From: an uncultured Bacteroidales bacterium | Lineage (GTDB): Bacteria > Bacteroidota > Bacteroidia > Bacteroidales > Paludibacteraceae | Length of the DNA stretch: 50,650 bases | NCBI GenBank assembly: GCA_902774185.1 | Contig: CACYHE010000025.1 | Location: 1 to 50,650 of the forward strand | Direction of reading: 5' to 3' | In this document: one piece after another, positions 15,635 to 47,311 of the stretch | Numbering within the stretch: the first letter of the stretch is position 1 | Layout of the letters: every line of letters begins with the position of its first letter | Position numbers and translations under genes: made by a program | The notes under the pieces: generated by a model | The model's input: the letters and a program-made list of their open reading frames with translations, nothing else | Told to the model about the DNA's origin: nothing | Databases searched by the model: none

Positions 15635-17839
15635 ATGGCAAATGTTCGGTTTGAAGCGTTAAAAAGTGCGTTTTCGCATAATTTTGTCGAATTAAGGAGT
15701 GAAGGAGTTAAGGATTTAAGGAGTGAACGCGTGAAGGATTATTTCGCGCAGGACGTGTTCACGCGCGAGAAGATGAAGGAATATATCGCGCAGGAGGTCT
15801 TGGATCAGTTGTTCGATGATGTGGATAACGGTCGGACGATCCACCGTGACATCGCGGGAGTGGTAGCGATCGGTATCCGTAAATGGGCGATCGAGCACGG
15901 TGCAACGCATTTCACGCACTGGTTTCAGCCCTTGACGGGCGGTACGGCGGAGAAGCATGATGCGTTCTTCACGTTAAAAGACGGTGCGTTGTTGGAGGAG
16001 TTCAGCGGCGAGAGTCTGTACCAGCAGGAACCGGACGCTTCGTCTTTCCCGAGCGGCGGTATCCGCAATACCTTCGAAGCGCGCGGTTACTCGGCATGGG
16101 ATCCTTCGAGTCCGGTCTTCTTGATTGGCGACACGCTCTGTATCCCGACGGTGTTCGTGGCTTATACGGGGGAAGCACTCGATTACAAGACCCCGCTGAT
16201 CCGTTCGACGGCAAGTCTGTGTCATATTGCACGAGAGGTGTGCGGTTATTTCGACAAACAGGTGAAGCACGTACACACGAACTTAGGCTGGGAGCAGGAG
16301 TATTTCCTCGTCGATGAGTCGCTCTATAACGCCAGACCGGACCTGATGTTGACGGGTCGGACGCTGATGGGACATAACAGCGCGAAGAGTCAGCAGCTCG
16401 AGGATCATTATTTCGGAGCGATCCCGGCACGGGTGTTGGCGTTCATGCAGGAGTTGGAGTACGAGGCACTGAAAGCCGGTATTCCGGTTCGAACGAGACA
16501 TAACGAGGTAGCGCCGAACCAGTTCGAGATGGCACCGATCTACGAGGAGGTGAACCTGTCGAACGACCATAACCTACTGGTGATGAGTATCATGGAGCGC
16601 GTGGCAGAGAAGCATCATTTCCGCGTACTGCTGCACGAGAAACCCTATGCGGGTGTGAACGGAAGCGGTAAGCACTGCAACTGGTCGATGCAGACCAATA
16701 CGGGTGTGAACCTGCTCGCACCGGGTAAGAACCCCTACCAGAACCTGCAGTTCATCACCTTCCTCGTGAACGTCCTCATGGCAGTGCATCGCCATAACGG
16801 ACTGCTCAAAGCGTCCATCGTGAGCGCAACCAACGAGCACCGTCTGGGCGCCAACGAAGCACCGCCGGCTATCATCTCCGTCTTCCTCGGCAAGCAGATC
16901 AGCGAAGTGCTGGACAAACTCGAGCATGCGAGTGCCGAGGAGGCGATCATCATCAATGCTAAGAAAGAGATGAAACTCGGTGTGGCGAACATCCCGGAGA
17001 TCTTGCTGGATAATACAGATCGCAACAGAACCTCGCCCTTTGCCTTCACGGGTAACCGGTTCGAGTTCCGCGCCGTGGGTTCGTCCGCCAACTGCGGTGC
17101 AGCGATGTTGGCGCTTAACGCAGCAGTCGCGGAGCAGTTGACACTCTTCAAGGAAGAAGTGGACGCACGTATCGAGAAGGGCGAACCCAAAGAGCGGGTG
17201 CTCTTCGACGTGATCAAGAAATATATCGTGGCGTGCAAAGCGATCCGTTTTGACGGCAATGGTTACAGCGACGAGTGGAAAGCTGAGGCTGCCAAACGCG
17301 GGCTGGACTGCGAGCAGAGTGTGCCGGTGGTCATCGACCGCTACCTGAGCGAGAGCAGTATAAAGATGTTCGAGCGCACAGGCGTGCTCACACGCGCGGA
17401 GTTACAAAGCCGTTGTGAGGTCAAATGGGAGACGTACGTGAAGAAACTGCAGATTGAGAGCCGCGTGATGGGCGACCTCGTGGTCAACCATGTGCTGCCT
17501 GCCGCCAAACGCTACCAGACGATGCTGCTGCAGAACGTGCTGGCGGTCAAGCAGGTGTTCAGCGCCGACGAGACAGCAAGTCTGAACGAGATGGACTACC
17601 ATATCATCAAGCAGATCGAGCGTCACTCGGGGGCTATCCTTGAAGGCGTGGAGAAGATGACCGAAGCACGGCATAAGGCGAACCGTCAACCCAACGAACG
17701 CACTAAAGCCGTGGCTTATCATGACACCGTCCTGCCGCTCATGGCGGATATCCGCGAACATGCCGATGCCCTCGAACTCATCGTCGATGACGAACTATGG
17801 ACATTACCCAAATACAGAGAATTAATGTTCATCCATTAA
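15635..17839 (+). CDS. glnN: type III glutamine synthetase
   Basis: 734 aa, the normal size of GSIII (about 730). It makes glutamine from glutamate, ammonia and ATP in the cytoplasm. GSIII hallmarks: HFTHWFQPLTGGTAEKHDAF near residue 95, GWEQEYFLVDESLY, NGSGKHCNWSMQTNTGVNLL, ATNEHRLGANEAPPAIISVF and FAFTGNRFEFRAVGSSANCG. Residues 19-35 contain a doubled peptide (LRSEGVKD LRSERVKD) coded by a quasi-tandem TTAAGGAGTGAAGG sequence, which looks like an in-frame repeat insertion. It is first in a likely operon with glmS, whose product consumes glutamine. Confidence 0.97.
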   Translation: MANVRFEALKSAFSHNFVELRSEGVKDLRSERVKDYFAQDVFTREKMKEYIAQEVLDQLFDDVDNGRTIHRDIAGVVAIGIRKWAIEHGATHFTHWFQPLTGGTAEKHDAFFTLKDGALLEEFSGESLYQQEPDASSFPSGGIRNTFEARGYSAWDPSSPVFLIGDTLCIPTVFVAYTGEALDYKTPLIRSTASLCHIAREVCGYFDKQVKHVHTNLGWEQEYFLVDESLYNARPDLMLTGRTLMGHNSAKSQQLEDHYFGAIPARVLAFMQELEYEALKAGIPVRTRHNEVAPNQFEMAPIYEEVNLSNDHNLLVMSIMERVAEKHHFRVLLHEKPYAGVNGSGKHCNWSMQTNTGVNLLAPGKNPYQNLQFITFLVNVLMAVHRHNGLLKASIVSATNEHRLGANEAPPAIISVFLGKQISEVLDKLEHASAEEAIIINAKKEMKLGVANIPEILLDNTDRNRTSPFAFTGNRFEFRAVGSSANCGAAMLALNAAVAEQLTLFKEEVDARIEKGEPKERVLFDVIKKYIVACKAIRFDGNGYSDEWKAEAAKRGLDCEQSVPVVIDRYLSESSIKMFERTGVLTRAELQSRCEVKWETYVKKLQIESRVMGDLVVNHVLPAAKRYQTMLLQNVLAVKQVFSADETASLNEMDYHIIKQIERHSGAILEGVEKMTEARHKANRQPNERTKAVAYHDTVLPLMADIREHADALELIVDDELWTLPKYRELMFIH

Positions 17840-17877
17840 ATAAATCGTTAAATCGTAAAACGTTAAATCGTAAATGG
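17840..17877. repeat. short quasi-tandem repeat between glnN and glmS
   Basis: Repeats of TAAATCG / TTAAATCGTAAA fill almost the whole 42-nt gap. Same style as the other short AT-rich tandem motifs between genes in this window. Confidence 0.6.
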
Positions 17878-17881
17878 TTTT

Positions 17882-19771
17882 ATGTGTGGAATAGTAGGAT
17901 ACATAGGTAAGAAAAAAGCTTATCCTATCTTGATCAAAGGTCTTCATCGTCTCGAGTATCGGGGCTACGACAGTGCCGGTGTGGCGCTCATCAACGAGCA
18001 GGGACAATTGAATGTCTATAAGGCGAAAGGTAAGGTGTCCGAACTCGAAGCATTCTGTGCCGAAAAAGACACGTGCGGTAATATAGGTATCGCGCACACG
18101 CGCTGGGCGACACACGGCGAACCCAACACCGTCAACGCTCATCCCCATTACTCGGAGTCCGAACGGCTGGCGATCATCCACAACGGTATCATTGAGAACT
18201 ACGCCGTGCTCAAAGCGGGGCTGATGGAGCAGGGGTACAGTTTCAAGTCCGACACCGACACGGAGGTGCTTGTGCAACTCGTCGAATATACGCAGGTCAA
18301 CCGTCATGTGGACCTCAAGACCGCGGTACAACTGGCGCTGCAACAGGTCATCGGAGCGTACGCGATTGCGATTCTGGACAAGGAACACCCGGACACGCTC
18401 ATTGCGGCACGTAAAGGTTCACCGCTCGTGGTCGGTATCGGCGAAGACGAGTATTTCCTGGCTTCCGACGCCACGCCGATCGTGGAGTACACCGACAAGG
18501 TGATCTATATTGAGGATGAGGAAGTAGTGGCTTTAAAGTTGAAAGTTGAAAGTTTAAAATTGAAAGAAGTTGGAGAGGTGAAAGTTGAAAGTAATATAGA
18601 TATTACTACGATTAACAACGTCACCAAGACACCGGAGATCAAGCGGTTGGAGTTGTCGCTGAGCCAGTTGGAGAAAGGCGGTTATCCACATTTCATGATC
18701 AAGGAGATCTTCGAGCAACCCCGTACGTTGACCGACTCCATGCGGGGTCGTGTGAACGTAAGGCAGGATAATATCGCGCTCTCGGGTTTCATCGATAACA
18801 AAGAGCGGTTCCTCAACGCCAAACGGATCATCATCACCGCCTGCGGTACGAGTTGGCACGCCGGTCTGATCGCGATGTACGCCATTGAAGAGTTCGCGCA
18901 GATACCCGTTGAGGTGGAGTACTCGTCGGAGTTCCGTTACCGCAAACCGGTCATCAACAAAGACGATGTGGTCATTGCCATCTCGCAGTCCGGTGAGACG
19001 GCAGATACGTTAGCAGCTATTCAGTTGGCGAAGTCGAAAGGAGCGTTCATCTTCTCCATCTGTAACGTTGTCGGTGCGTCTATTCCGCGTATCTCGGACA
19101 GCGGTTGTTATACGCATGTCGGACCCGAGATAGGTGTTGCATCGACCAAAGCCTTCACGGCACAGGTCGTTGCCCTCACCATGCTTGCCCTCTGTATCGG
19201 AAAAGAGAAGGGTACTATGACCGAAGAACAGTACCTCAGCATCGTTCGAGAACTGGGGCAGATTCCCGATAAGATCGAACGGGTACTGGGTCAGAACAAA
19301 CGAATAGCCGATTTCGCCAAAACCTTTACCTACGCCCAGAATTTTATATACCTCGGTCGAGGGTATAACTTCCCCGTAGCCATGGAAGGAGCGCTCAAAC
19401 TCAAAGAGATATCCTATATCCATGCCGAGGGTTATCCCGCTGCCGAAATGAAACACGGTCCTATCGCCCTCATCTCGCAAGAGATGCCGGTTGTTGTCGT
19501 TGCGCCGCATTGCGGGACGTACGAGAAAGTGGTAAGTAACATCCAGGAGATCAAAGCCCGCAAGGGTAGGGTGATCGCGGTTGTCACCGAAGGCGATGAA
19601 CTGGTCAGCAAGATTGCCGATTACATCATCGAAGTGCCGCAGACCGAAGAGTGTCTTACCCCGCTGTTGACCGTCATTCCCCTGCAGTTGTTAGCCTACC
19701 ACATCGCCGTCGTCAAAGGTTGTGATGTCGATCAACCCCGTAATTTGGCAAAATCAGTAACAGTAGAATAA
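17882..19771 (+). CDS. glmS: glutamine-fructose-6-phosphate aminotransferase (isomerizing)
   Basis: 629 aa. Converts fructose-6-phosphate and glutamine to glucosamine-6-phosphate, the first step to UDP-GlcNAc for peptidoglycan and LPS. The N-terminal nucleophile Cys2 is present (MCGIVGYIG), then HRLEYRGYDSAGVAL, HTRWATHGEP; two SIS domains follow (CGTSWHAG, SQSGETADTLAA, GRGYNFPVAMEGALKLKEIS) and the C-terminal DQPRNLAKSVTVE. The linker between the glutaminase and the first SIS domain (residues about 218-238) holds KLKVESLKLKEVGEVKVES, an in-frame low-complexity insertion. No glmS ribozyme is visible upstream. It is 42 nt after glnN and 1 nt before ddh, so an operon is likely. Confidence 0.97.
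   Translation: MCGIVGYIGKKKAYPILIKGLHRLEYRGYDSAGVALINEQGQLNVYKAKGKVSELEAFCAEKDTCGNIGIAHTRWATHGEPNTVNAHPHYSESERLAIIHNGIIENYAVLKAGLMEQGYSFKSDTDTEVLVQLVEYTQVNRHVDLKTAVQLALQQVIGAYAIAILDKEHPDTLIAARKGSPLVVGIGEDEYFLASDATPIVEYTDKVIYIEDEEVVALKLKVESLKLKEVGEVKVESNIDITTINNVTKTPEIKRLELSLSQLEKGGYPHFMIKEIFEQPRTLTDSMRGRVNVRQDNIALSGFIDNKERFLNAKRIIITACGTSWHAGLIAMYAIEEFAQIPVEVEYSSEFRYRKPVINKDDVVIAISQSGETADTLAAIQLAKSKGAFIFSICNVVGASIPRISDSGCYTHVGPEIGVASTKAFTAQVVALTMLALCIGKEKGTMTEEQYLSIVRELGQIPDKIERVLGQNKRIADFAKTFTYAQNFIYLGRGYNFPVAMEGALKLKEISYIHAEGYPAAEMKHGPIALISQEMPVVVVAPHCGTYEKVVSNIQEIKARKGRVIAVVTEGDELVSKIADYIIEVPQTEECLTPLLTVIPLQLLAYHIAVVKGCDVDQPRNLAKSVTVE
18533..18592. repeat. in-frame short-repeat insertion in glmS
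   Basis: Quasi-tandem AAAGTTGAAAGTT / AAAATTGAAAG units, clearly different in base composition from the GC-rich codons on either side. Encodes KLKVESLKLKEVGEVKVES. Confidence 0.7.
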
Positions 19772-19772
19772 T

Positions 19773-20630: not shown

Positions 20631-20636
20631 TCCCCT

Positions 20637-21326
20637 ATGGAAGAGAAACAACATATCGGACAACTCTTTGACCGCATCGCCGGTACCTACGACGGACTCA
20701 ACCATGGTCTGTCTCTGAATACCGACCGGCGTTGGCGGAAGAAAGCGGTGGCACAGATGCAACCCGTAGAGCACGTGCTGGACGTAGCTGTCGGTACGGC
20801 GGATCTCACTATCGAGATGCTCAAACGGGGTAAGGCACAACGTGTCACCGGTATCGACCTCTCTGATCAGATGATGGCATACGGGAAGTTGAAAGTGGAA
20901 AGTTTAAAGTGGAAAGAGCGGGTAGAATTTATTCATGCCAATGCACAACACATGCCCTTTGAGGATAACACCTTCGATGCCGTCACCTGTGCCTATGGTT
21001 GCCGTAACTTCCAGAACTTAGACGAAGGACTTCGAGAGATGTACCGTGTGCTCAAACCCGGGGGACAGGTCACGATACTCGAGTTCAGTTATCCCAAAAA
21101 CCGCCTCATCCGCTGGGTCTATGATCTCTATTTCTCGAAGATCCTGCCTTGGGTGGGACGTATCGTCAGCAAGGACAAGACGGCTTATACCTATCTCAAT
21201 AAGAGCGTCAAGTCTTTCTGTTGGGGCGAAGCCTTCGTGCAGCATCTCCACGATGCCGGTTTCAAAGAGGAGCACTTTATTCCTCTCTCCTTCGGCATCA
21301 CCACTATTTATACTGCTACGAAATAA
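20637..21326 (+). CDS. menG: demethylmenaquinone methyltransferase (UbiE/MenG family)
   Basis: 229 aa SAM-dependent methyltransferase that completes menaquinone synthesis at the inner face of the membrane. Seen: FDRIAGTYDGLNHGLSLNTD, RRWRKKAV, VLDVAVGTADLTIEM (SAM motif I), GIDLSDQMM, and FGCRNFQ-type CAYGCRNFQNLDEGL, LKPGGQVTILEFSYP. Residues about 83-93 (KLKVESLKWKE) are coded by the same AAGTTGAAAGTGG repeat type found in glmS. Bacteroidota use menaquinone, so MenG rather than UbiE is the likely activity. Confidence 0.93.
   Translation: MEEKQHIGQLFDRIAGTYDGLNHGLSLNTDRRWRKKAVAQMQPVEHVLDVAVGTADLTIEMLKRGKAQRVTGIDLSDQMMAYGKLKVESLKWKERVEFIHANAQHMPFEDNTFDAVTCAYGCRNFQNLDEGLREMYRVLKPGGQVTILEFSYPKNRLIRWVYDLYFSKILPWVGRIVSKDKTAYTYLNKSVKSFCWGEAFVQHLHDAGFKEEHFIPLSFGITTIYTATK
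20884..20917. repeat. in-frame short-repeat insertion in menG
   Basis: AAGTTGAAAGTGG / AAAGTTTAAAGTGG quasi-tandem units; same family as 18533-18592 in glmS. Confidence 0.65.
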
Positions 21327-21372
21327 ATGGTAAATAAATGGTAAATGAACAAATAGTAAATGATTTTATGGT
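21327..21372. repeat. short quasi-tandem repeat overlapping a gene start
   Basis: AAATGGTAAATAAATGGTAA units separate menG and the Dabb gene and run into the ATGGTAAAG start of the latter. Confidence 0.55.
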
Positions 21373-21673
21373 AAAGCACATTATTTTATGGAAACTGCGC
21401 TCGGAGTTGAGTGCAGATCAGAAACGCGAAGCAGCCTTGGCTATCAAGGCGGGTTTGGAAGGCTTGCAAGGTCAAGTACCGGGTCTGAAGGAAATTCATG
21501 TTCAGATTGACGGAGTCCTTGCCAGCAGTAATGCCGACATCATGTTGGATAGCACCTTGGAGTCTCCGGAAGCCCTCAAAGGTTATGCCGTTCATCCTGC
21601 CCATGTGGCGGTAGCTACCGGTATCGTTCGGCCCAATACCGAACTCCGTACCTGCCTCGACTTCGAGATCTAA
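21368..21673 (+). CDS. Dabb (stress-responsive A/B barrel) domain protein
   Basis: 101 aa from ATG at 21368 (MVKHIILWKLRSEL), the usual first residues of this family; the open frame upstream is only repeat sequence. Typical ferredoxin-like dimeric barrel: hydrophobic MVKHIILWKL strand, central helix LEGLQGQVPGLKEIHVQID, and the conserved C-terminal HPAHVAVATGIV. Exact role unknown; family members are small cytoplasmic proteins. Last gene before a strong terminator, so probably the end of the glnN operon. Confidence 0.85.
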   Translation: MVKHIILWKLRSELSADQKREAALAIKAGLEGLQGQVPGLKEIHVQIDGVLASSNADIMLDSTLESPEALKGYAVHPAHVAVATGIVRPNTELRTCLDFEI

Positions 21674-21715
21674 AATCACAAATCACAAATCACAAATCAA
21701 AAATCACAAATCAAA
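21674..21715. repeat. short quasi-tandem repeat (AATCACAA type)
   Basis: Four to five copies of AAATCACA / AAATCAAA immediately after the Dabb stop codon. The same motif, reversed, lies in frame in pepT. Confidence 0.65.
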
Positions 21716-21741
21716 AAAAGGAACCCGAAAGTTCCTTTTTT
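21713..21741 (+). terminator. bidirectional rho-independent terminator
   Basis: AAAAAGGAAC (21715-21724), 6-nt loop, GTTCCTTTTT (21731-21740). Confidence 0.88.
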
Positions 21742-21832: not shown

Positions 21833-21862
21833 AAAAAAGAGCCTTTTGAGCTCTTTTTTTTG
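21832..21862 (-). terminator. terminator of the tRNA-Glu transcript
   Basis: AAAAAAAGAGC, 7-nt loop, GCTCTTTTTTT; symmetrical, so it can act on either strand, and it sits right after the tRNA 3' end on the minus strand. Confidence 0.8.
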
Positions 21863-22788: not shown

Positions 22789-22791
22789 TAC

Positions 22792-22892
22792 AGTCCGTTT
22801 CCTGCTCGTCGTTTCTTTAGTCCGTCTCCTGCTCGTCGTTTCTATAGTCCGTCTCCTGCTTCGCGTTTCTTTAGTCCGTTTCCTGCTTCGCG
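22792..22892. repeat. 27-nt tandem repeat, about 3.7 units
   Basis: Units start at 22792, 22819, 22846 and 22873: AGTCCGTYTCCTGC followed by TCGTCG or TTCGCG and TTTCTTT. No reading frame of interest. A similar 13-mer (TGCTCGTCGTTTC) occurs near 13405. Confidence 0.85.
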
Positions 22893-27074: not shown

Positions 27075-29303
27075 ATGGAAGATTTAACTATTTTGATGTA
27101 CGCCGTGTTGGCGGCATCGGTTTTAGCACTTGGTTTTGCGTATTATTTCTATCGTTCGATGTTGAAGAAGGACGAGGGTACGGCTCTGATGAAGACCATC
27201 GCATCGCATGTGCGTAAGGGCGCTATGGCGTATCTGAAACAGCAGTATAAAGTGGTGACGATCGTGTTCGTCGTCTTGGCTGTTGTCTTTGCGGTGATGG
27301 CGTATTTCCATCTGCAGAACGGTATCGTATGGTTCGCGTTCCTGACAGGCGGTTTCTTCTCCGGCTTGGCTGGTTTCTTCGGCATGAAGACGGCGACCTA
27401 TGCATCGGCTCGAACGGCTAACGCAGCCCGTCAGAGTCTGAATGCCGGACTGCAGGTCGCTTTCCGTTCGGGTGCCGTGATGGGTCTGACCGTAGTCGGT
27501 CTGGCGCTGTTAGACGTAGCCGGTTGGTTCCTGATCCTGCAGAAGACAGGCCTGCTGGAGATGGTGGGCGCACAAGCGGACATGATCACCATCACCACGA
27601 CGATGCTGACCTTCGGTATGGGTGCCTCGACGCAGGCTTTGTTTGCCCGTGTAGGCGGCGGTATCTATACGAAGGCTGCTGACGTAGGCGCTGATCTAGT
27701 CGGAAAGACCGAGTATAACATCCCCGAAGATGATCCGCGTAACCCTGCCACGATAGCCGATAACGTGGGCGATAACGTAGGAGACGTAGCCGGTATGGGT
27801 GCCGACTTGTACGAGTCCTACGCCGGTTCGATCCTGGCAACGATGGCGCTGGGTGCCGCCGCTTTCGCTTCGTCCGGCGTAGCCGGCATGCAGATGAAAG
27901 CCGTGCTGGCACCGTCTTTGATTGCGGCCTGCGGCGTGTTGCTCTCACTCATCGGTATCTTCATGGTCAAGACCAAAGAAGGGGCAGGGATGAAAGAGTT
28001 ACTGCGTGCGCTCAGTATCGGTACCAACACCGCCGCTTTCCTCATTGCAGGCGTCACTTTCGGTATCTTCGCTTGGCTCTTCGGTACGGAAACCGACCAA
28101 TGGTGGCAGGTATCGCTCTCTGTAGTAGTGGGTCTGCTGGCTGGCGTGATCATCGGTAAATCAACCGAATATTATACCTCGCAGAGTTACAAACCGACGC
28201 AGAAAGTGAGTGAGAGCAGTCAGACCGGTCCGGCTACCGTCATCATCAGCGGTCTGGGGCTGGGGATGCTCTCCACCGCTATTCCGGTTGTGACGGTAGG
28301 TATCGCCATCGTGCTGGCGTACCTCTGTGCGAACGGTTTCCAGGTAGCCTTCACGCCGGAGAACCTCAGTCTGGGTCTGTACGGTATCGGTATCGCAGCG
28401 GTCGGCATGCTCTCCACGCTCGGTATCACTTTGGCTACCGACGCTTACGGCCCTATCGCCGATAACGCAGGCGGTAACGCCGAGATGTCGGGTCTGCCGG
28501 CAGAAGTGCGTCAACGTACCGACGCCCTCGATGCCCTGGGTAACACCACCGCTGCTACCGGCAAAGGTTTTGCCATCGGTTCGGCTGCCCTTACAGCCCT
28601 TGCACTCTTGGCTTCGTATGTCGAGGAGATCAAGATAGCTTTGATTCGTACCGGCGAGAAACTGCCGGCATTGGCAGACGGCACGCAGATACCGGCGGAC
28701 AACGCTACGCTCGTTGATTTCATGAACGCGTATAACGTCAACCTGATGAACCCCATCGTGCTGGTAGGTATCTTCATCGGTTCGATGATGGCGTTCCTGT
28801 TCTGCGGTCTGACGATGAACGCAGTAGGTCGTGCGGCACAGAAGATGGTGGAAGAGGTACGCCGCCAGTTCAAGACTATCAAAGGTATCCTCGAAGGCAA
28901 AGCCGATCCGGATTACGCACGCTGCGTAGCCATCTCGACCAAGGGTGCGCAACATGAGATGTTGTTGCCCTCTATCTTAGCCATCATCGTACCGATCATC
29001 ACCGGTCTCATCTTAGGCGTTGCCGGTGTGTTAGGTCTGCTCATCGGCGGTCTGGCTACGGGCTTCGTGCTGGCGGTCTTCATGGCGAATGCAGGCGGTG
29101 CGTGGGATAATGCCAAGAAATATGTGGAGGAAGGACATTTCGGTGGTAAAGGTTCTGACTGCCACAAGGCCACCGTCGTTGGCGACACCGTGGGAGATCC
29201 GTTCAAAGACACATCGGGACCGAGTCTCAATATCCTCATCAAGCTCATGTCGATGGTAAGTATCGTGATGGCAGGATTGACGGTAGCGTATCACCTGTTA
29301 TAA
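27075..29303 (+). CDS. hppA: membrane-bound ion-translocating pyrophosphatase
   Basis: 742 aa with about 16 membrane helices. It couples PPi hydrolysis to H+ or Na+ export. Seen: the substrate-binding DVGADLVGKTEYNIPEDDPR, NPATIADNVGDNVGDVAGMG, the second acidic motif TDAYGPIADNAGGNAEMSGL, and GGAWDNAKKYVEEG with VGDTVGDPFKDTSGPSLNIL at the C-terminus. GNTTAATGKG (Ala, not Lys, after GNTTA) indicates the K+-dependent class. Ion choice cannot be read here; Bacteroides relatives pump Na+ or both. Divergent from ppdK, which makes PPi in its PEP-forming direction, so the pair fits one PPi economy. Confidence 0.96.
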   Translation: MEDLTILMYAVLAASVLALGFAYYFYRSMLKKDEGTALMKTIASHVRKGAMAYLKQQYKVVTIVFVVLAVVFAVMAYFHLQNGIVWFAFLTGGFFSGLAGFFGMKTATYASARTANAARQSLNAGLQVAFRSGAVMGLTVVGLALLDVAGWFLILQKTGLLEMVGAQADMITITTTMLTFGMGASTQALFARVGGGIYTKAADVGADLVGKTEYNIPEDDPRNPATIADNVGDNVGDVAGMGADLYESYAGSILATMALGAAAFASSGVAGMQMKAVLAPSLIAACGVLLSLIGIFMVKTKEGAGMKELLRALSIGTNTAAFLIAGVTFGIFAWLFGTETDQWWQVSLSVVVGLLAGVIIGKSTEYYTSQSYKPTQKVSESSQTGPATVIISGLGLGMLSTAIPVVTVGIAIVLAYLCANGFQVAFTPENLSLGLYGIGIAAVGMLSTLGITLATDAYGPIADNAGGNAEMSGLPAEVRQRTDALDALGNTTAATGKGFAIGSAALTALALLASYVEEIKIALIRTGEKLPALADGTQIPADNATLVDFMNAYNVNLMNPIVLVGIFIGSMMAFLFCGLTMNAVGRAAQKMVEEVRRQFKTIKGILEGKADPDYARCVAISTKGAQHEMLLPSILAIIVPIITGLILGVAGVLGLLIGGLATGFVLAVFMANAGGAWDNAKKYVEEGHFGGKGSDCHKATVVGDTVGDPFKDTSGPSLNILIKLMSMVSIVMAGLTVAYHLL

Positions 29304-29324
29304 ATTGAAAATTGAAAATTGAAA
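29302..29324. repeat. short quasi-tandem repeat (AAATTGAA type)
   Basis: Three units of AAATTGAA/AAATTGAAAG directly after the hppA stop; TTTCACC units follow at 29350-29366. Confidence 0.6.
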
Positions 29325-32983: not shown

Positions 32984-33772
32984 TTATGTCTCATATCGGT
33001 CGAGCGCTTCGTTCATGATCCGGTATCCTTCGGCGATGATCTCTTCCGCTTTGTCAAAATCAAAGGTATTATACGCGTACTGGCGCATGGATGCGAGCAC
33101 GTCAGGCGGGGTGAGACGAAGGGACAGCATCGTGTTCTGCTGGATCTGCATGTCGCTCATGCGGTCTAACATCTGAACGAAGTTCATCTTCTTCTCCATC
33201 GGGATGCCGTCTTTACCGCTGATGTCTGCCGCAACAAGGATGTCTCCTTCGGTACGGGGAACGACATGCAGGGGTAGGGGATCCAAGATCCCGCCGTCGA
33301 TAAGCAGTTTATCGCCCATCTGAACGGGTTCGAAGAAAAGCGGAATACTGATGGACGCACGAACGGCTTGGAAAAGACTGCCTGTTCGAAAGACCACCTC
33401 TTCCGTACTGCGCACGTCCGTTGCCACGATGGCACAAGGGATAGGCAGTTGTTCGATTGGCTGGTCCGGCACAATGGTCTGTAACTCTTTGATGATCTTC
33501 TCGCCCTTCACCAGCGAGTTATGGCTAAGCAGATTGATGTCCATCATGCGAAGGATCATCTGCTTATCCACACTCAGAAACCACTCTTTGGCTTGTTTGA
33601 TCTGCCCGGCGGCGTACATACCGGCGATGATCGAACCCATAGAGCAACCCGCTATACTCGTGATCGTATAACCTCGTTCCTCCAGCGCCTCGATAGCTCC
33701 TATATGGGCTAATCCTCTCGCTCCGCCGGATCCCAATACCAGTGCAACTTTCTTACTTTCCACTTCTTTCAC
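32984..33772 (-). CDS. patatin-like phospholipase (RssA/NTE type)
   Basis: 262 aa. Glycine-rich oxyanion loop GSGGARGLAHIGAIEAL, nucleophile elbow AGCSMGSIIAGMYA (Gly-x-Ser-x-Gly) and the catalytic Asp in LLIDGGILDPLP form the Ser-Asp dyad of patatins. No signal peptide; acts as a cytoplasmic lipid acyl hydrolase. The first residues (MKEVESKK) come from a TTTCACC repeat that fills the gap to gcvT, so the true start is uncertain by a few codons. Lies 22 nt after gcvT, probably co-transcribed. Confidence 0.92.
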   Translation of the reverse strand: MKEVESKKVALVLGSGGARGLAHIGAIEALEERGYTITSIAGCSMGSIIAGMYAAGQIKQAKEWFLSVDKQMILRMMDINLLSHNSLVKGEKIIKELQTIVPDQPIEQLPIPCAIVATDVRSTEEVVFRTGSLFQAVRASISIPLFFEPVQMGDKLLIDGGILDPLPLHVVPRTEGDILVAADISGKDGIPMEKKMNFVQMLDRMSDMQIQQNTMLSLRLTPPDVLASMRQYAYNTFDFDKAEEIIAEGYRIMNEALDRYET

Positions 33773-33803
33773 CTTTCACCTTTCACCTTTCACCTTACAC
33801 TTC
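33758..33803. repeat. short quasi-tandem repeat (TTTCACC type)
   Basis: Four to five copies of CTTTCAC between gcvT and the patatin gene, extending into the patatin start. Confidence 0.65.
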
Positions 33804-34889
33804 CTTCGCCGGAATGAGTTTTTCGCGTATCTTGATATAGATAATGTTCTCTTTCTTGGCAAATTCGGTCTTCACGTAACCCATACCGATACCAACTTTG
33901 GTATTCGGCAGCATGATACCGGACGTCACATTACCGATGATTTCGCCCTTTTCATCGCAGATCTCGTATCCGTTACGCGGTATCGCACGCTCCAGACATT
34001 CGAAATGAACGAGTTTGCGTTTCACACCTTCCGCTTTCTGTTGTTTCAGATAATCGCGGTCGATAAAATCTTTGGCATCGAGCTTGGTGATCCAACCCAG
34101 ACCTGCCTCCAATGGCGAAGTGGTGTCATCGATATCGTGACCGTACAAGCAGTACCATTTCTCCAGACGCAGACTATCCCGAGCACCCAGACCGATAGGC
34201 GCCAAACCAAAAGGTTTACCTACTTCGAACAAAGCATCCCAGATCTGTTTGCCTTTGTCTGCAGGGAAATACAACTCAAAACCGCCGGCACCCGTATAAC
34301 CGGTGTTACTCAAGATCACACCCGGTACACCGGCAAAACTCCACTCCCGGAAGGCATAATAGTCGATGGACTTCAAATCAGCGTCGGTCAACAGTTGCAA
34401 TAACTCCGTTGCCTTCGGTCCCTGTACCGCCAATTGACCATACCGCTCCGAAGCGTTCTCTAAGCTAATCTCTCCCCAATTTTTAATTTTTAATTTTTCA
34501 TTTTTAATTTGATTTATCCACTCCCAGTCTTTGTCGATATTGCCGGCATTAACGACCATGAGGTACTTGGTCGTGGAGTACTTGTAGATGATCAGGTCAT
34601 CGACGATACCGCCTTTGCCGTTCGGCATGCAGGTGTATTGACATTTGCCCGAAGCAATAACCGAAAGATCATTGGTCGTGATGTACTGCAAGAAGTCCAA
34701 AGCCTTCTCGCCTTTCACCCAGAACTCTCCCATGTGACTTACATCGAACACGCCTACGCCTTCGCGTACGATTATGTGCTCCTGATTGATACCCGTCGGG
34801 TACTGGATAGGCATGTTAAAGCCTGCAAATTCAGCCATCTTTGCGCCTAACGCAATATGGATGTCTGTAAACGGTGTTGTTTTTAACAT
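33795..34889 (-). CDS. gcvT: aminomethyltransferase, glycine cleavage T protein
   Basis: 364 aa. Transfers the methylene group of glycine (on GcvH) to tetrahydrofolate and releases ammonia. Seen: [102 protein letters not shown] and [20 protein letters not shown]. Residues about 126-138 ([10 protein letters not shown]) are encoded by an AATTTTTAATTTTTAA-type repeat and look like an in-frame insertion before the conserved [11 protein letters not shown]. The other gcv genes are not in the window. Confidence 0.95.
34477..34512. repeat. in-frame short-repeat insertion in gcvT
   Basis: ATTTTTAATTTTTAATTTTTC quasi-tandem, the same motif as the intergenic copy at 36451-36481. Its A+T content is nearly 100% inside a roughly 50% GC gene. 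Confidence 0.7.
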
Positions 34890-35276: not shown

Positions 35277-36452
35277 TTATTTCTTAACGATCTCGAGGAT
35301 GACCTTCATGGCCGCTTCCATCGAAGGAATGGGGAGGTATTCGTATCTACTATGGAAATTCTCTCCGCCTGCGAAGATATTGGGGCAGGGTAGGCCTTCG
35401 AAACTCAGTCTCGCGCCGTCTGTTCCGCCACGAATCGGTTTGACGATAGGTGTAACTCCTACCGATTCCATCGCACTTTTTGCCAGGTCAACGATATGCA
35501 TCACGGGTTCGATCTTCTCCCGCATGTTGTAGTACTGATCGCGTATCTCGATTTCTGCCGTTCCTTCGCCGAACTCGGCATTGATCTTCTTCACCAGATG
35601 CTCCAATTCTCGTTTGCGGTACTCGAACAGCGTGCGGTCGTGATCCCGGATGATATAACTGAGCGTCGTCTCCTCCACCGTACCGTTCATCCCGATCAAA
35701 TGGAAGAAACCTTCATATCCTTGCGTGTGCTCGGGACTCTGCCAACGAGGTAACATCAGGATGATCTGGTTGGCGATACGCATGGAGTTACGCATCTTAT
35801 GGTACGCGCTACCCGGGTGCACATTCAGACCATGCACCTTGATCTTACAGGATGCCGCGTTGAAGTTCTCAAACTCCAACTCACCGATCGCTCCGCCGTC
35901 CATCGTATAAGCAAAATCGCAGCCGAAAGCCTTCACGTCAAAATGATCCGCACCTTGACCAATCTCTTCGTCCGGCGTAAAACCGATACGCACTTTCCCG
36001 TGCTGAATCTCCGGGTGCTGAATGAGGTACTCCATCGCCGTCACGATCTCTGCGATACCCGCTTTATCATCGGCTCCTAAAAGCGTCGTTTGGTCGGTCA
36101 CGATGACATCCTGTCCGGCGTATTTAGGGTCGATGAAATCGCGCTCTTCTGCTTTCACGATACTTGCCTTTACATGCCTACCACTGGCGTCCGGACTCGT
36201 ATCCATATGGGCAATGAAACCGATGACCGGACATTTGTCATTTGTCATTTGTGATTTGTCATTTGCCTCCAATGTCGCCATAATATATCCGTTTTCATCG
36301 AGCGAAACCTCGGTGAGACCGATAGTTTTTAACTCTTCCGCCAGATACCGTGCAAACTCCATCTGTCCGGGCGTCGAAGGCGTCATACCCGTGTTCTCGT
36401 CACTCGTCGTGCAGAACGACACATACTTCAAAAAACGTTCAACTATATCCAT
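35277..36452 (-). CDS. pepT: peptidase T (tripeptide aminopeptidase)
   Basis: 391 aa M20-family zinc exopeptidase removing N-terminal residues from tripeptides. Metal and catalytic motifs: [78 protein letters not shown] and C-terminal [33 protein letters not shown]. Residues about 62-74 ([10 protein letters not shown]) come from a CAAATGACAAAT-type repeat and interrupt the normally short segment before [10 protein letters not shown]. Lies 23 nt after the dehydrogenase gene with only an AATTTTTAATT repeat between, so the two are probably one operon. Confidence 0.96.
36232..36267. repeat. in-frame short-repeat insertion in pepT
   Basis: ATTTGTCATTTGTCATTTGTGATTTGTC-style units of about 7-8 nt; related to the AATCACAA repeat at 21674-21715. 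Confidence 0.7.
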
Positions 36453-36481: not shown

Positions 36482-37471
36482 GACAATATTCATGTCTTTC
36501 GGTCGATTTTCGACGAAAGCAAGGATATTGTCCGTCACGTTCTCGCACATCGCGATACGTCCTTCCCATGTGCCGGTTCCGGTATGCGGTGAAAGGACCA
36601 CGTTCGGCAGCGTCAAAAGTTCCGTTGGAACCGCAGGTTCGTGTTCATACACATCCATGGCCGCACCGGCGATGATACCGCTCTTAAGTGCCTCTATCAG
36701 CGCCGCTTCATCTACGTGCGCGCCACGCGCGGTATTGATAAGGTACGCACTCCGTTTCATCATTCCTAACTCCGGCTTACCGATGATATGATGCACTTCC
36801 GGCGTGTAGGGGAGGTTCAGACTGAGAAAATCACTATCCTGCAGCAAGGTCTGGAAATCGACGTATTTCACCATTTCATCATTTCCACCATTAAGCGCTT
36901 TTAGCGCGTCATCATTGATTTTGTGTCGGTTATGGTAGATGATTTTCATTCCCGATGCTTTCGCTCTGCGTGCAAGAGCCTGACCGATTCGTCCCATACC
37001 CAAGATCCCCAAGGTCTTGCCATACAGCGAATGACTCAGATTTTTCATTACGCCGAATAAACTCTCTTCTTTAAACTTGCCTACTTCTCTCAACTCTAAA
37101 CTCTCCACTCTCAACTTCTTGTCGAATTCCACAATTCGACGAGATACCGCCATCATCAGCGCAAAAGCCAACTCGGCCGTCGGTTCAATCACCGGCTGCG
37201 GCGTGTTCGTCACACGTATCCCGCGCTCCTTACATGCCTCCAGGTCGATATTATTGTATCCCGCTCCGAAATTGGCAATCAGTTTCAGGTTCGGCATCGC
37301 CTCGATCATCGTTCCCGGCACGTTATAATCGAACGTGCTTACAAGGATCTCGACGTCCTTCAATTCTTCCGAAGAACAATGACCAATGACCAATGACAAA
37401 TCACCAATGCCTCGTTCTACGAGGCGCTCAAATCCCTCTTTCGGTAACGCTGTTGTAAATGCAATTTTCAT
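36476..37471 (-). CDS. D-isomer-specific 2-hydroxyacid dehydrogenase
   Basis: 331 aa. NAD(P)-dependent reduction of 2-ketoacids or glyoxylate/hydroxypyruvate; exact substrate not readable. Rossmann motif LGILGMGRIGQALARRAK, NTARGAHVDEAALIEAL with the catalytic Arg, DVYEHEPAVP with Glu, and the catalytic His in VLSPHTGTGTWEGR. Three short-repeat insertions seem to sit in frame: residues about 20-32 (IGDLSLVIGH), 117-137 (LRVESLELREVGKFKEES) and 185-202 (LKALNGGNDEMV). All lie at loops between conserved blocks, so the enzyme is probably active. Promoter at 37493-37524. Confidence 0.9.
   Translation of the reverse strand: MKIAFTTALPKEGFERLVERGIGDLSLVIGHCSSEELKDVEILVSTFDYNVPGTMIEAMPNLKLIANFGAGYNNIDLEACKERGIRVTNTPQPVIEPTAELAFALMMAVSRRIVEFDKKLRVESLELREVGKFKEESLFGVMKNLSHSLYGKTLGILGMGRIGQALARRAKASGMKIIYHNRHKINDDALKALNGGNDEMVKYVDFQTLLQDSDFLSLNLPYTPEVHHIIGKPELGMMKRSAYLINTARGAHVDEAALIEALKSGIIAGAAMDVYEHEPAVPTELLTLPNVVLSPHTGTGTWEGRIAMCENVTDNILAFVENRPKDMNIVN
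36866..36915. repeat. in-frame Asn/Gly repeat in the dehydrogenase
   Basis: Minus-strand GCGCTTAATGGTGG, AAATGATG, AAATGGTGAAA modules, matching those in acyl-CoA synthetase 1 and valS. Confidence 0.6.
37062..37120. repeat. in-frame short-repeat insertion in the dehydrogenase (KLRVESLELRE)
   Basis: Minus-strand AAGTTGAGAGTGGAGAGTTT units, the same family as in glmS and menG, in GC-richer form. Confidence 0.65.
37377..37412. repeat. in-frame short-repeat insertion in the dehydrogenase (CAATGAC type)
   Basis: CAATGACCAATGACCAATGA units, then CAAATCACCAATG; encodes GDLSLVIGH on the minus strand. Confidence 0.65.
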
Positions 37472-42513: not shown

Positions 42514-43597
42514 AATAGACGGATTAGAGGCAAAATTCCATGAGGTGAGTCTGTTGATTACAGACCCTTCGGTCATTGCCGACCAGGCGCGTTATGTCCG
42601 GCTTAATCGGGACTACCATGACTTGGAACGTGTGCTCGAATGTGCCCGTCGTTACAAGAAAGCCGTTACGGATCTTCAGGATGCCAAGGACCTCTTTTTC
42701 AATGAGTCCGATCCGGAGATGAAGGAGATGGCGAAAGCGGAGATCGATGAACTCGAACCGCAGATTCCTGCGCTCGAAGAAGAACTGAAACTGCAACTCC
42801 TTCCGCAAGACCCCGAAGACGGTAAGAATGTCGTTATGGAGATCCGTGGCGGAACAGGTGGTGACGAAGCGGCGATCTTTGCAGGAGACCTCTTCCGGAT
42901 GTACACCAAATATTTCGAGATCAAAGGATTCAAATATACCATCTCGTCTTTCACCGAAGGTGCTTCCGGCGGTTATAAGGAGATCATCTTCAATGTGACC
43001 GGACAGAACGTCTATGGTACCCTCAAATACGAATCCGGTGTGCATCGTGTGCAACGCGTACCCGTCACGGAGACCCAAGGACGTGTGCATACTTCTGCCG
43101 CTACGGTGGCAGTCTTACCCGAAGCCGATGAGTTTGAGGTGCATATCAACGAAGGGGAGATCAAATGGGAGACCTTCCGCTCCGGTGGAGCCGGTGGACA
43201 GAACGTCAATAAAGTGGAGTCGGGTGTACGCCTTCGTTATAACTGGAAGAATCCCAACACGGGCGAGGTGCAAGAGATACTCATCGAGTGTACCGAGACA
43301 CGGGACCAGCCGAAGAACAAAGAACGTGCCCTCTCTCGTCTGCGTACGCAGATTTACGACAAAGAGCATCAGAAATATATCGATGACATCGCTGCGCGTC
43401 GTAAGACGATGGTCTCCACCGGTGACCGCTCTGCGAAGATCCGCACCTATAACTATCCGCAGGGACGTATCACCGACCATCGTATCGGTTATACCGTTTA
43501 TAACCTAGCCGCCTTCATGGATGGCGATATCCAAGGCGTCATCGATGCCCTGCAAGTAGCCGAAAACGCCGAAAGACTTAAAGAGTCTGAACTGTAA
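42497..43597 (+). CDS. prfA: peptide chain release factor 1
   Basis: 366 aa. Recognises UAA and UAG and releases the peptide. The stop-codon tripeptide P-V-T is in [19 protein letters not shown] (RF1 type, not the SPF of RF2), and the catalytic GGQ is in [20 protein letters not shown]-terminal coiled coil about 60-105. Overlaps the folD 3' end by 17 nt. Confidence 0.97.
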
Positions 43598-43638
43598 ATC
43601 GTCAATCGTCCAATCGTCAATCGTCCAATCGTCAATCA
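43596..43638. repeat. short quasi-tandem repeat (CAATCGT type)
   Basis: Five to six units AATCGTC / CAATCGTC fill the gap between prfA and rsmE. The same motif is in frame in the GSCFA gene at 47071-47110. Confidence 0.7.
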
Positions 43639-43640
43639 AG

Positions 43641-44910: not shown

Positions 44911-45208
44911 AACGCTCGAACTCCTCCTCCGTCAGTAAGAGCTTTAACTCATTATGAATGGCTTGCATGCGCTCCATATTCTCAGCACGGGTCAAACCCT
45001 TCTGACGAATCACGGCATACTTGAGATGCATACGATAAATCGTATCAATACGAACGGAATCGCGAATACCTAATTCACGAACCAAACGAGTAGTCTGACG
45101 CAAAGCCTCCTCCTCCGGAGTACGTTGAGGACGATCGGAAGGCTCTTGAGCCCAAACGGCTCCGCCTATAAAAAGAACGCAAAGAATAGCGAATAAACGT
45201 GTTTTCAT
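44804..45208 (-). CDS. small secreted hypothetical protein, Spy/LTXXQ-like
   Basis: 134 aa from MKTRLFAILCVLFIGGAVWA with signal peptide cut near WAQ. The mature part is helical and charged: RTPEEEALRQTTRLVRELGI, YRMHLKYAVIRQKG, RMQAIHNELKLLLTEEEFER, a pattern like the periplasmic Spy/CpxP LTxxQ proteins. Pro-rich C-terminus (MPATSPAPTELQSTDQP). It overlaps the PAP2 gene tail by 107 nt on the opposite strand and is divergent from the permease gene (23 nt between starts). Confidence 0.75.
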   Translation of the reverse strand: MKTRLFAILCVLFIGGAVWAQEPSDRPQRTPEEEALRQTTRLVRELGIRDSVRIDTIYRMHLKYAVIRQKGLTRAENMERMQAIHNELKLLLTEEEFERFMNHPAEQPRRPRGTNALMPATSPAPTELQSTDQP

Positions 45209-45231
45209 ACACGAATAACATAACAAAAATC

Positions 45232-46461
45232 ATGCCAAATAATGCTTTTAAAATAGCATCCAAAATTTATTTTTCGCAGAAAGGGGAACATCGTTCTTCA
45301 CGCCCTGCCGTGCGGGTGGCATTGGCGGGTATGATCGTAGGCGTGGCGGTCATGATTCTTACCGTTTGTATCGTGGTCGGATTCAAACAGACCATCACCG
45401 ATAAAGTGGCGGGATTTGGAGCACATATACAAGTCGTTTCCTTTGATAATAACAATACCTACGACCTGCATCCGATTACCGTTTCGGATAGTCTGCTTAA
45501 CCAACTGGCGAGTTATAACCACGTCGTTTCGGCTGCACCTTTCATCACAAAACCCGGTATGATTAAGACCGATTCAGCCTTTCAGGGAATCGTACTCAAA
45601 GGAACGGACTATTGGACCTTCTTTGCGCAAAACATTGTGGAAGGTGTCATCCCTTCTCAACCGCAAGAGGTACTCCTCTCCCGCATGACAGCGAATCGGC
45701 TACAACTGCATCTCAATGATGACATCCTTTGTTATTTTGTGGATGATACCGATGTGCGGGCAAGACGTTTTACCATCGTCGGACTATACGACACCGGTTT
45801 TGCACAAGCTGATGAACTATTCGTATTATCGCCGCTTGAAACGGCGCGAAGACTGCAACAATGGGAACACAATACCTATTCGGGGGTAGAGATTCTGATT
45901 GATGACATTGCGAAACTGGAAGACGTGGCAGATGAGATTTATTTTGCTACTGTCAATCATTTGGATGAACATGGCTATAATACCTACTATGTCCAGACGC
46001 TCGTGCAACTCAATCCGGCTATCTTTGGCTGGCTTGAACTACTGGATATGAACGTCATCGTCATCATCATTCTCATGCAGCTGGTAGCCGGATTTAACAT
46101 CGTCTCCGGACTGATCATCCTCATCTTGGACGGCGTACAACTGATCGGAACACTCAAAGCACTCGGTGCCGATAACCGCTTCGTACGACGTATCTTCTTG
46201 ACACAAGCCGCTATGCTGATCGGCAAAGGTGTCCTGTGGGGAAATATCATCGGACTCGGTATCGCTGCAATGCAGTATTTCGGACATCTCATCCCGCTTG
46301 AAGCTACCACCTATTATGTCGATACCGTACCGGTCTCTTTTGCATGGTCATGGCTCATCGTACTTAACGTACTTACTATCGGTATCTCGTTACTCATCCT
46401 GCTGTTACCATCCATGATCATCAGTAAAATAAGTCCGGCAAAAGTAATGCATTTTGAGTAA
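45232..46461 (+). CDS. ABC transporter permease, FtsX/LolC-LolE family
   Basis: 409 aa from MPNNAFKIASKIYFSQKGEH (45232). Membrane helix at about 28-50 (VALAGMIVGVAVMILTVCIV), a large extracytoplasmic domain of about 220 residues, then three helices at the C-terminus (MNVIVIIILMQLVAGFNIVS; FLTQAAMLIGKGVLWGNIIG; LIVLNVLTIGISLLILLLPS). This matches the lipoprotein-releasing LolC/E layout. The ATPase partner is not in the window. Overlaps the GSCFA start by 8 nt. Confidence 0.88.
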   Translation: MPNNAFKIASKIYFSQKGEHRSSRPAVRVALAGMIVGVAVMILTVCIVVGFKQTITDKVAGFGAHIQVVSFDNNNTYDLHPITVSDSLLNQLASYNHVVSAAPFITKPGMIKTDSAFQGIVLKGTDYWTFFAQNIVEGVIPSQPQEVLLSRMTANRLQLHLNDDILCYFVDDTDVRARRFTIVGLYDTGFAQADELFVLSPLETARRLQQWEHNTYSGVEILIDDIAKLEDVADEIYFATVNHLDEHGYNTYYVQTLVQLNPAIFGWLELLDMNVIVIIILMQLVAGFNIVSGLIILILDGVQLIGTLKALGADNRFVRRIFLTQAAMLIGKGVLWGNIIGLGIAAMQYFGHLIPLEATTYYVDTVPVSFAWSWLIVLNVLTIGISLLILLLPSMIISKISPAKVMHFE

Positions 46462-47311
46462 TATGAAACTGCAAACGATAGTGGACATACCGGCATCGCC
46501 CTGGAAAATAGGGTATGAGGATAAAATCCTCATGATCGGTTCGTGTTTCTCGGATGAGATAGGCGAACAAATGCAGCAACGATACCTGAATGTCACCTGT
46601 AATCCCTTCGGTACGCTCTATAACCCGCTTTCCATCGCACAGGCATTGGCCATTACGGATGTGCCTGAACTCATCGAACAAGAAGGATTATGGCATGCCA
46701 TGAGTCATCACGGTTCATTTTCTCGGGCAGATAAAAACGAGGCTGAAGTCGTGATACGGACGTCCATTGAGACGATGCAGAAGGCATTAAACGAAGCGAC
46801 TGTCATCATCGTTACCTTTGGTACGGCGTGGGTCTATGAGAAAGATGGGGAGATCGTCGGAAATTGTCATAAGTTACCGGAATCGTGCTTTACGCGTCGT
46901 CGTCTTTCGGTCGATGAGATCGTTTCAGCTTGGCAACCCATTATTGCTCGTTATCCCGATAAACATTGGCTTTTCACCGTCTCACCGATTCGCCATATTC
47001 GCGATGGTCTCCATGAGAACCAACTCTCCAAAGCCACATTGCTGCAAGCAATCGATCAATTGATTAAATCGAACAATCAATCGTCCAATCGTCAATCGTC
47101 CAATCGTCAATATTTCGAGGCACTCGAAATTATGCTTGATGAGTTGCGTGACTATCGTTTTTATGCGGATGATCTCGTGCACCCATCTTCGCTTGCCGTC
47201 AATTATATCTGGGAGCGTTTCGTGGATACCTTCTGTACGCCGCAAACAAAAAATGAACTCGTGCTCCAACATAAGCGTTGGAAACACGAGCATCATCTTC
47301 CTTTACACTAA
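46454..47311 (+). CDS. GSCFA-domain protein
   Basis: 285 aa. Family signature GSCFSDEIGEQM near residue 33, then CNPFGTLYNPLSI, VTFGTAWVYE, FTRRRLSVDEIVSAW, FTVSPIRHIRDGLHENQLSK and YRFYADDLVHPSSLAVNYIW. GSCFA proteins resemble SGNH-type hydrolases (Ser in GSCF, Asp/His in the C-terminal block); substrate unknown, possibly polysaccharide acetyl groups. Residues about 206-219 ([13 protein letters not shown]) come from a CAATCGTCCAATCGTC repeat and look inserted. Start could be 46454 or 46463. Confidence 0.88.
   Translation: MSNMKLQTIVDIPASPWKIGYEDKILMIGSCFSDEIGEQMQQRYLNVTCNPFGTLYNPLSIAQALAITDVPELIEQEGLWHAMSHHGSFSRADKNEAEVVIRTSIETMQKALNEATVIIVTFGTAWVYEKDGEIVGNCHKLPESCFTRRRLSVDEIVSAWQPIIARYPDKHWLFTVSPIRHIRDGLHENQLSKATLLQAIDQLIKSNNQSSNRQSSNRQYFEALEIMLDELRDYRFYADDLVHPSSLAVNYIWERFVDTFCTPQTKNELVLQHKRWKHEHHLPLH
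47071..47110. repeat. in-frame short-repeat insertion in the GSCFA gene
   Basis: CAATCGTC/CAATCGTCAATCGTC units; nearly identical to the intergenic copy at 43596-43638. Confidence 0.75.

What the first reader, a model, noticed from the sequence alone, without database searches (positions are those of the whole stretch)
15692..47110. Short quasi-tandem repeats inserted in frame in conserved enzymes
Low-complexity segments of 34-60 nt, built of 7-14 nt units, sit in frame in glnN (15692-15739), glmS (18533-18592), menG (20884-20917), gcvT (34477-34512), pepT (36232-36267), the hydroxyacid dehydrogenase (37062-37120 and 37377-37412) and the GSCFA gene (47071-47110). They encode peptides such as [30 protein letters not shown] and SNRQSSNRQ, and differ sharply in composition from flanking codons. 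From memory of the families, these positions are short loops in homologues. Related motifs lie between genes. This resembles Rickettsia palindromic elements inside proteins, but these are not palindromic. A mechanism that seeds and tolerates such repeats in essential genes would be new to me.
Basis: partly seen in the sequence, partly recalled or inferred. Interest (0 to 1): 0.78.

Follow-up and report, generated by a model that had tools for sequence, protein, structure and literature searches.

The report
Four-unit DNA blocks inside bacterial enzymes
In a group of rumen bacteria, short DNA blocks of about 30 letters, each made of about four slightly different copies of a seven-letter word, are scattered through the genome and sit in frame even inside everyday enzymes, looking like a very small copy-and-spread element whose way of moving is unknown.

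Summary
All eight segments, in seven genes, are quasi-tandem arrays of 7-8 nt units, in frame; chance gives almost none. Same-genus orthologues often lack them, or carry other units or palindrome-like inserts in the same loop. Several arrays replace codons rather than insert.

They do not look like free-running slippage tracts. In a 450,650-nt sample of this genome, 63 of 124 heptad arrays are 28-34 nt, four whole units. One ordered 30-mer occurs 7 times among 60 blocks examined in this genome; in relative G336 one occurs 10 times among 17 blocks (46 identical-order pairs; permuted mean 14, maximum 38 of 5000). Units differ by species. Against this: the size mode is unclear in pooled relatives (25 of 66), and order sharing is weak in this genome.

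Best reading: a non-palindromic four-heptad micro-repeat spread by copying, then filtered by selection into stop-free frames, loops and signal peptides. The copying is inferred. It works like Rickettsia palindromic elements but fails their palindrome and size criteria. Heptanucleotide repeats are known; ordered four-unit blocks inside enzymes are a new variant.

The parts
15694..15735 (+). period-8 array in glnN (type III glutamine synthetase), peptide LRSEGVKDLRSERVK; +18 nt against G015
17841..17874 (.). intergenic period-15 (7+8) array between glnN and glmS
18537..18566 (+). 30-nt four-heptad block in glmS, one substitution from the block found at 7 loci of this genome; a partial second array follows to about 18592
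   Evidence: orthologues
20887..20916 (+). 30-nt four-heptad block in menG/ubiE; no net length gain against G007 and G001
21673..21717 (.). AAATCAC array overlapping the end of the ORF after menG
29302..29324 (.). AAATTGA array at a gene end
33766..33800 (.). CTTTCAC (AAAGGTG) array overlapping the 3' end of gcvT
34478..34510 (-). 33-nt array in gcvT, peptide [12 protein letters not shown]; shared with G015
36232..36265 (-). 34-nt CAAATGA array in pepT; G001 and G015 carry other units and G007 a GC-rich insert in the same loop
36451..36481 (.). AATTTTT array between pepT and the dehydrogenase
37087..37116 (-). 30-nt four-heptad block in the 2-hydroxyacid dehydrogenase, peptide KLRVESLELRE
37377..37408 (-). 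second array (GTCATTG units) in the dehydrogenase; G015 has GATTAGC units there
43597..43637 (.). AATCGTC/AATCGTCC (7+8) array at a gene junction
47077..47111 (+). 35-nt AATCGTC/AATCGTCC array in the GSCFA gene, peptide [13 protein letters not shown]
47309..47343 (.). period-16 (8+8) array after the GSCFA gene
50508..50536 (.). intergenic TTTCAAT array

Best explanation
The segments are copies of a very small dispersed repeat: blocks of about four imperfect heptads plus a few bases (mostly 29-34 nt), with recurrent ends in the best-studied unit family, AGTNN(AAAGTNN)3AAAG. Shown: the size mode in this genome, identical ordered blocks at unlinked loci, species-specific units, presence in genes and between genes, and absence or other occupants in orthologues. 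Inferred: blocks spread by copying an existing block (as single-stranded DNA or RNA template) into a break or gap, without target duplication and often with loss of local bases, so that codons are partly replaced. Purifying selection then leaves in genes only copies in stop-free frames and tolerant places: loops, signal-peptide cores, linkers.
For: Size: of 124 heptad arrays in the own sample 62 are 29-34 nt, 33 shorter, 29 longer; coding 27 of 51, intergenic 17 of 32, gene-edge 18 of 41; simulated detection loss of short arrays is too small to make this mode. In the same unselected sample the AAAGTNN family has blocks of 16, 23, 30, 37 and 44 nt in 13, 9, 15, 2 and 1 cases, null none: a peak at 30 and a sharp fall beyond. 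Copies: in G336, 10 of 17 blocks are the same 30-mer; identical-order pairs 46, permuted mean 14.0, none of 5000 reaching it. In G000 one 30-mer occurs 7 times among 60 blocks. Ends: of 20 places in G009, G007, G329 and G018 picked for a 21-nt core, 15 have AGTCG directly before it and 18 AAAG directly after it. Units: 52 distinct dominant units in 124 arrays, about 115 expected. Dialects: same-species nearest neighbours 140.7 of 259, permuted maximum 121 of 1000; whole-genome counts in 31 genomes. Sieve: in-gene arrays are open in 3.69 of 6 frames, intergenic in 2.46.
Against: Pooled relatives show no clear size mode: 25 of 66 heptad arrays at 29-34 nt, 26 shorter, 15 longer (G015 12 of 23, G007 7 of 19), and their few AAAGTNN blocks fall with length (16 nt 9, 23 nt 4, 30 nt 2). 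The figures '36 of 60' (G000) and '15 of 17' (G336) blocks of 30 nt come from places chosen mostly (G000) or wholly (G336) by three-unit patterns, which lose shorter blocks. Order sharing in the own sample does not exceed permutation (92 arrays, 20.41 against 20.33 +- 0.32; 43 mixed arrays, 16.14 against 16.46) and is weak among selected blocks (29 against 20.7, 235 of 5000 as high); the copying evidence rests mainly on G336. A clean +30 insertion is not seen (26 instances, -6 to +63). No enzyme or template was identified or searched for. I lowered this confidence from 0.57 after searches were weighed.
Confidence: 0.5

Rival explanations
1. Ordinary long simple sequence repeats: each array grew where it stands by polymerase slippage in 7-nt steps from a local seed and was kept when harmless.
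For: Period 7 dominates; heptanucleotides are the commonest long class in most genomes studied and a polymerase-footprint slippage idea is in print (PMC4679880 section 3; PMC4692102 passages). Own-genome order tests null or weak. No clear size mode in pooled relatives.
Against: Length peak at four units in this genome; identical ordered blocks at unlinked loci in G336; few, species-specific units; array-free orthologues do not clearly resemble the array's own unit more than other units (longest match 4.47 against 4.30, 296 of 2000 controls as high; best of 14 nt 8.35 against 8.08, 158 of 2000); net length changes not enriched for multiples of 21 (4 of 24 non-zero).
Confidence: 0.25
2. A transposase-driven micro-element (REP/RAYT-like or MITE-like): a transposase recognises the block, or a neighbouring hairpin, and moves it.
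For: Recurrent ends with mostly unrelated flanks; no target duplication, as expected for single-strand transposition (the expectation is recalled); in G336 and G009 some blocks abut other dispersed repeats that look hairpin-like.
Against: Most representative blocks have no fold; many unit families would need separate recognition; no transposase was looked for.
Confidence: 0.13
3. Functional sites or modules under selection, for example protein-binding sites upstream of genes and useful peptide modules inside genes.
For: 30 of 52 intergenic arrays lie nearest a gene start; N-terminal arrays are hydrophobic.
Against: Found in unrelated enzymes, in either orientation, with many units; most sister species lack them at the same place.
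Confidence: 0.07
4. Assembly or binning artefact.
For: Named relatives are metagenome assemblies (titles).
Against: Arrays sit in uninterrupted orthologous genes in several separate assemblies, with flanks that align.
Confidence: 0.02

Closest known systems
Heptanucleotide repeats / long simple sequence repeats of bacteria (Mrazek 2007, seen only as cited; TAACTGA repeats, PMC4679880; GGGAATC repeats, PMC4692102)
   Same: 7-nt unit, imperfect copies, dispersed, mostly outside genes, sporadic distribution incl. some Bacteroidetes. For Xanthomonas GGGAATC the majority of arrays is said to have four units (PMC4692102 section 10).
   Different: The units here have no G-tracts; many unit families per genome, species dialects, identical ordered blocks, and 61 of 172 arrays wholly inside called genes, against 7-11% at least partly intragenic in Xanthomonas.
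Rickettsia palindromic elements
   Same: Short repeats in frame in unrelated metabolic genes, several families (PMC10969869 passages; PMC3767692 passages), typically in non-structured segments (PMC2996958 passages).
   Different: RPEs are 100-150 bp and palindromic; these are about 30 nt and mostly do not fold.
Cyanobacterial STRR sequences
   Same: Heptanucleotide tandem repeats (recalled; only a search listing was seen).
   Different: Not compared here.
REP / MITE elements
   Same: REPs are 20-40 bp dispersed repeats (PMC3733652, start of abstract in a listing).
   Different: No palindrome in most blocks and no target duplication.

Membership tests
Rickettsia palindromic element | palindromic sequence | tested here: not met
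   RNA-parameter folding of 8 representative arrays: 5 show no fold on either strand, two fold weakly (-1.6 to -3.6 kcal/mol), one 7+8 array folds at -9.4 on one strand only
Rickettsia palindromic element | length 100-150 bp | tested here: not met
   62 of 124 heptad arrays are 29-34 nt, longest 95; size of RPEs from PMC3767692 passages
Rickettsia palindromic element | in-frame presence in unrelated protein genes | tested here: met
   61 of 172 arrays inside called genes; window genes identified
Bacterial heptanucleotide repeat (long SSR) | tandem 7-nt units beyond chance | tested here: met
   81 period-7 arrays against 0 in null
Bacterial heptanucleotide repeat (long SSR) | open-ended unit number from slippage | tested here: inconclusive
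   peak at four units in this genome (63 of 124), not due to detection, but no clear peak in pooled relatives (25 of 66)
REP/MITE | hairpin or terminal inverted repeats; for MITEs target duplication | tested here: not met
   no exact duplication of 3 nt or more at the ends of 68 blocks; with slack 8 of 68 reach 4-5 nt, about 5 expected; folds absent in most
REP/MITE | mobilised by a transposase in trans | not tested
Cyanobacterial STRR | homology to the cyanobacterial units | not tested
   no cyanobacterial sequence was compared

The most novel reading that the evidence does not exclude
A dedicated copying activity in this genus writes blocks of about four heptads from a template that drifts from species to species: a non-palindromic micro-mobile element that overwrites short stretches of host DNA, codons included, and so supplies ready-made loops and signal-peptide cores.
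Probability: 0.25. Interest if true: 0.87.

Novelty: new variant of a known kind. Interest (0 to 1): 0.66.

Why it matters
It is a natural assay of which places in conserved enzymes accept foreign peptides: sister species fill the same loop with different repeats. A four-heptad size and shared unit orders, if they hold in complete genomes, would mean that heptad arrays in bacteria can be made by one discrete process rather than open-ended slippage, and strain comparison could find that process. Repeats that form the cores of what look like signal peptides would be a direct route from spreading DNA to protein function.

Tried and rejected
Local seed idea: menG, the dehydrogenase and glnN looked as if the array grew from conserved codons, but over 26 array instances the own unit does not clearly match array-free orthologues better than other units. 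Unit-order sharing in the own sample: null; clear only in G336. Unit-quantised insertion: not supported. Target duplications: none. Type IX secretion tail at array-bearing C termini (8 of 15 C-terminal arrays look so to the eye): no such model matched in the 7 proteins scanned, so it stays a resemblance. Two 30-nt blocks were sought as exact matches in viral contigs: none. Rfam on the window at gathering scores: one tRNA only. An early alignment with unturned minus-strand loci was wrong and was redone (replaced). An earlier count said 9 segments; the finding lists 8.

Cautions: the AAAGTKK pattern read backwards is nearly itself, so the built-in control says little. Counts are overlapping 21-mers, not arrays, and their place lists are capped. 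Of the 97 in-gene arrays 69 had no usable orthologue in the DNA held.
Full report
What was checked. The window is contig C25 of a 2.19 Mb, 35-contig genome. All eight segments of the finding are arrays of 7-8 nt units, in frame, in genes whose families Pfam confirms.

More than chance. In 450,650 nt (window and 20 sampled stretches) a self-match scan finds 172 arrays against 1.33 per null pass; at a stricter cut period 7 has 81 and the null none. Called genes cover 85.3% of the sample and hold 61 arrays wholly inside, 15.9 per 100 kb coding, against 78.8 per 100 kb for the 52 intergenic ones, or 168 if the 59 arrays overlapping gene ends are added. The gene caller is my own simple one, so the classes are approximate. 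Two genomes of other families of the order have almost no heptad arrays in 100 kb each: G026 0 and G020 1. In same-genus samples of 60-100 kb the density of arrays of all six periods runs from 57 per 100 kb (G015) to 9 (G008).

Orthologues. For the window genes I aligned 13 to 20 genomes each. The GlmS turn carries AAAGTTG-type units in G000, G001 and G007 (AGAG variants in the last two), AAAGGTG units in G006 and ACAAGGT units in G015. There is no array in G003, G009, G013 and G012 or in the other families; G004, G008 and G016 have a longer turn without a clear array. In RUG225 (92% identical) the same turn holds a palindromic CCCCTCC...GGGAGGGG stretch. PepT: CAAATGA units in G000, AATCAGC in G001, GAACGAAT 8-mers in G015, a GC-rich insert in G007, no array seen in the others. 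GSCFA: CAATCGTC in G000, ACGACTA in G012, a longer repeat in G006, palindrome-like inserts in G015 and G010. MenG: AAAGTTG in G000, ACGACCA in G015. So the same places are filled by different short repeats in different species. GcvT is an exception: G000 and G015 share one array, and G002 and G003 look eroded. The shared GlmS order in G000, G001 and G007 could be old, or gene exchange; I did not resolve it.

Insertion or replacement. 28 of 97 in-gene arrays (own and relatives) had an orthologue above 50% identity spanning the array in the DNA held; 26, at 20 distinct sites, had an array-free one. Net differences run from -6 to +63 nt; 10 of 26 lie within 6 nt of zero although in-gene arrays average 31 nt. 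Examples without change are LNSQLSTLNC for LRDALSDLPI (G000 L038 against G014) and EEFRIQNSDLR for EAFAINSHDLP (G015 against G002). Four of 24 non-zero differences are multiples of 21, so whole-unit growth is not favoured; but loops vary in length anyway, and the array-free relative is not the ancestor. The array-free orthologues do not clearly resemble the array's own unit more than other units.

The block. In this genome array lengths peak at 29-34 nt: 62 of 124, with 33 shorter and 29 longer, in coding, intergenic and edge classes alike. Simulated detection falls too little at 24 nt to explain this. 63 of 124 have four whole units. In the AAAGTNN family the recurrent ends are AGTNN at the left and AAAG at the right. 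In the unselected sample such blocks number 13 of 16 nt, 9 of 23, 15 of 30, 2 of 37 and 1 of 44, with none in five null passes. In the larger set, mostly gathered with a three-unit pattern, they are 16 of 23 nt, 36 of 30, 6 of 37 and one each of 44 and 51. One 30-mer occurs at 7 loci with unrelated flanks. The glmS block differs from it by one base, and menG and the dehydrogenase carry 30-nt blocks of the same design. Against this, pooled same-genus relatives have no clear peak: 25 of 66 at 29-34 nt, 26 shorter, 15 longer, with G015 most like the own genome (12 of 23); their AAAGTNN blocks fall with length, 9, 4 and 2.

Copying. G336 had 18 matches to an ARAGTCR pattern at 17 places, all fetched. 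The pattern loses blocks under three full units, so that 15 of 17 blocks are 30 nt shows mainly that longer ones are rare. It does not select order: 10 of 17 are the same 30-mer, mostly between T and C, and among the 13 mixed blocks identical-order pairs number 46, whereas shuffling unit order gives 14.0 on average and at most 38 in 5000. Nine of the 17 places were aligned; only the block is conserved, though some places abut other shared repeats. The same ordered core occurs in G009, G007, G329 and G018 (listing); of 20 places chosen for it, 15 have AGTCG directly before it and 18 AAAG directly after. It also occurs in G000, at L033, L036 and in part L025. In G000 the order test is weak (29 against 20.7; 235 of 5000) and an earlier one over all heptad arrays of 28 nt or more was null. 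There is no target duplication and little or no fold in most.

Dialects. Units are few (52 distinct among 124 arrays, about 115 expected) and species-bound (266 arrays of 8 genomes). Whole-genome counts over 31 genomes: AAAGTKKx3 is 68 in G000 but 1 in G007; GTTKAGHx3 is 146 in G007 and 26 in G000; ARAGTCRx3 is 58 in G007, 36 in G329, 30 in G015, 23 in G000 and 0 in G014 and G017. AAAGTTGx3 occurs in 5 of 296 genomes drawn from the phylum, this one included.

Sieve and use. In-gene arrays are open in 3.69 of 6 frames, intergenic ones in 2.46 (p = 8e-5). Of 97 in-gene arrays, 17 start within the first 26 codons; these are more hydrophobic than the 65 in mid-protein (means 0.51 and -0.93, p = 0.0007) and more often read on the pyrimidine-rich strand (11 of 17 against 19 of 65, p = 0.011). 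By eye 9 of the 17 form the core of a signal peptide; no signal-peptide program was run, but SusD and OstA families among the carriers fit export. Two of the 17 (both G007) are probably over-called starts.

Literature. Seen: PMC4679880 (abstract, sections 3, 8, 10, 15, 23), PMC4692102 (passages, section 10), passages of PMC2996958, PMC10969869 and PMC3767692. Mrazek 2007 and Ogata 2000 were seen only as cited there. None of the listings of searches showed a description of four-heptad blocks in Bacteroidales genes; the library lacks most subscription journals. In Xanthomonas the majority of GGGAATC arrays is reported to have four units, in a paper on quadruplexes; the same number here without G-tracts suggests another cause (inference).

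Verdict. Real and unusual. The evidence favours a copied micro-repeat over slippage tracts, but not decisively: the size mode is clear in this genome, the order sharing in a relative. How it copies itself is open. On re-reading I lowered the best reading from 0.57 to 0.50 and raised slippage from 0.20 to 0.25 because of the pattern selection and the relatives.

Noticed in passing
window 2248-2350 and 3349-3482: Two arrays of the same 35-nt unit (GCGTCTATGCTTTGCGCATC...), 2.9 and 3.8 copies, about 1 kb apart.
   Followed up: no
window 22792-22887: 27-nt tandem repeat, 3.6 copies, 90% matches.
   Followed up: no
L232 glmS turn; L208 and L220 GSCFA loop; L137 pepT loop: GC-rich palindromic or hairpin-like inserts (by eye), in frame, in the very loops that carry heptad arrays in sister species.
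   Followed up: partly
L352, L353, L364, L365, L367 (G336); L385, L386, L392 (G009): Heptad blocks abut other dispersed repeats such as GCTGCAG...TGTGCAGCAG and GTGCGTAGCGCACTCC.
   Followed up: no
L036:2535-6266: Large surface-type protein with PARCEL/DUF285 and BspA-type repeats, carrying an AAAGTCG block near its C terminus.
   Followed up: no
L033, L036, L040, L046 C-terminal arrays: VESQKSKVESQK or [10 protein letters not shown] just before an NGQL-like tail recurs in different proteins, as if tail and array travel together.
   Followed up: partly
L311:8507-8575, L313:10304-10343, L319:9228-9262: 16-nt arrays of AGACCGCTACGCTGAC type in G002 and G007.
   Followed up: no
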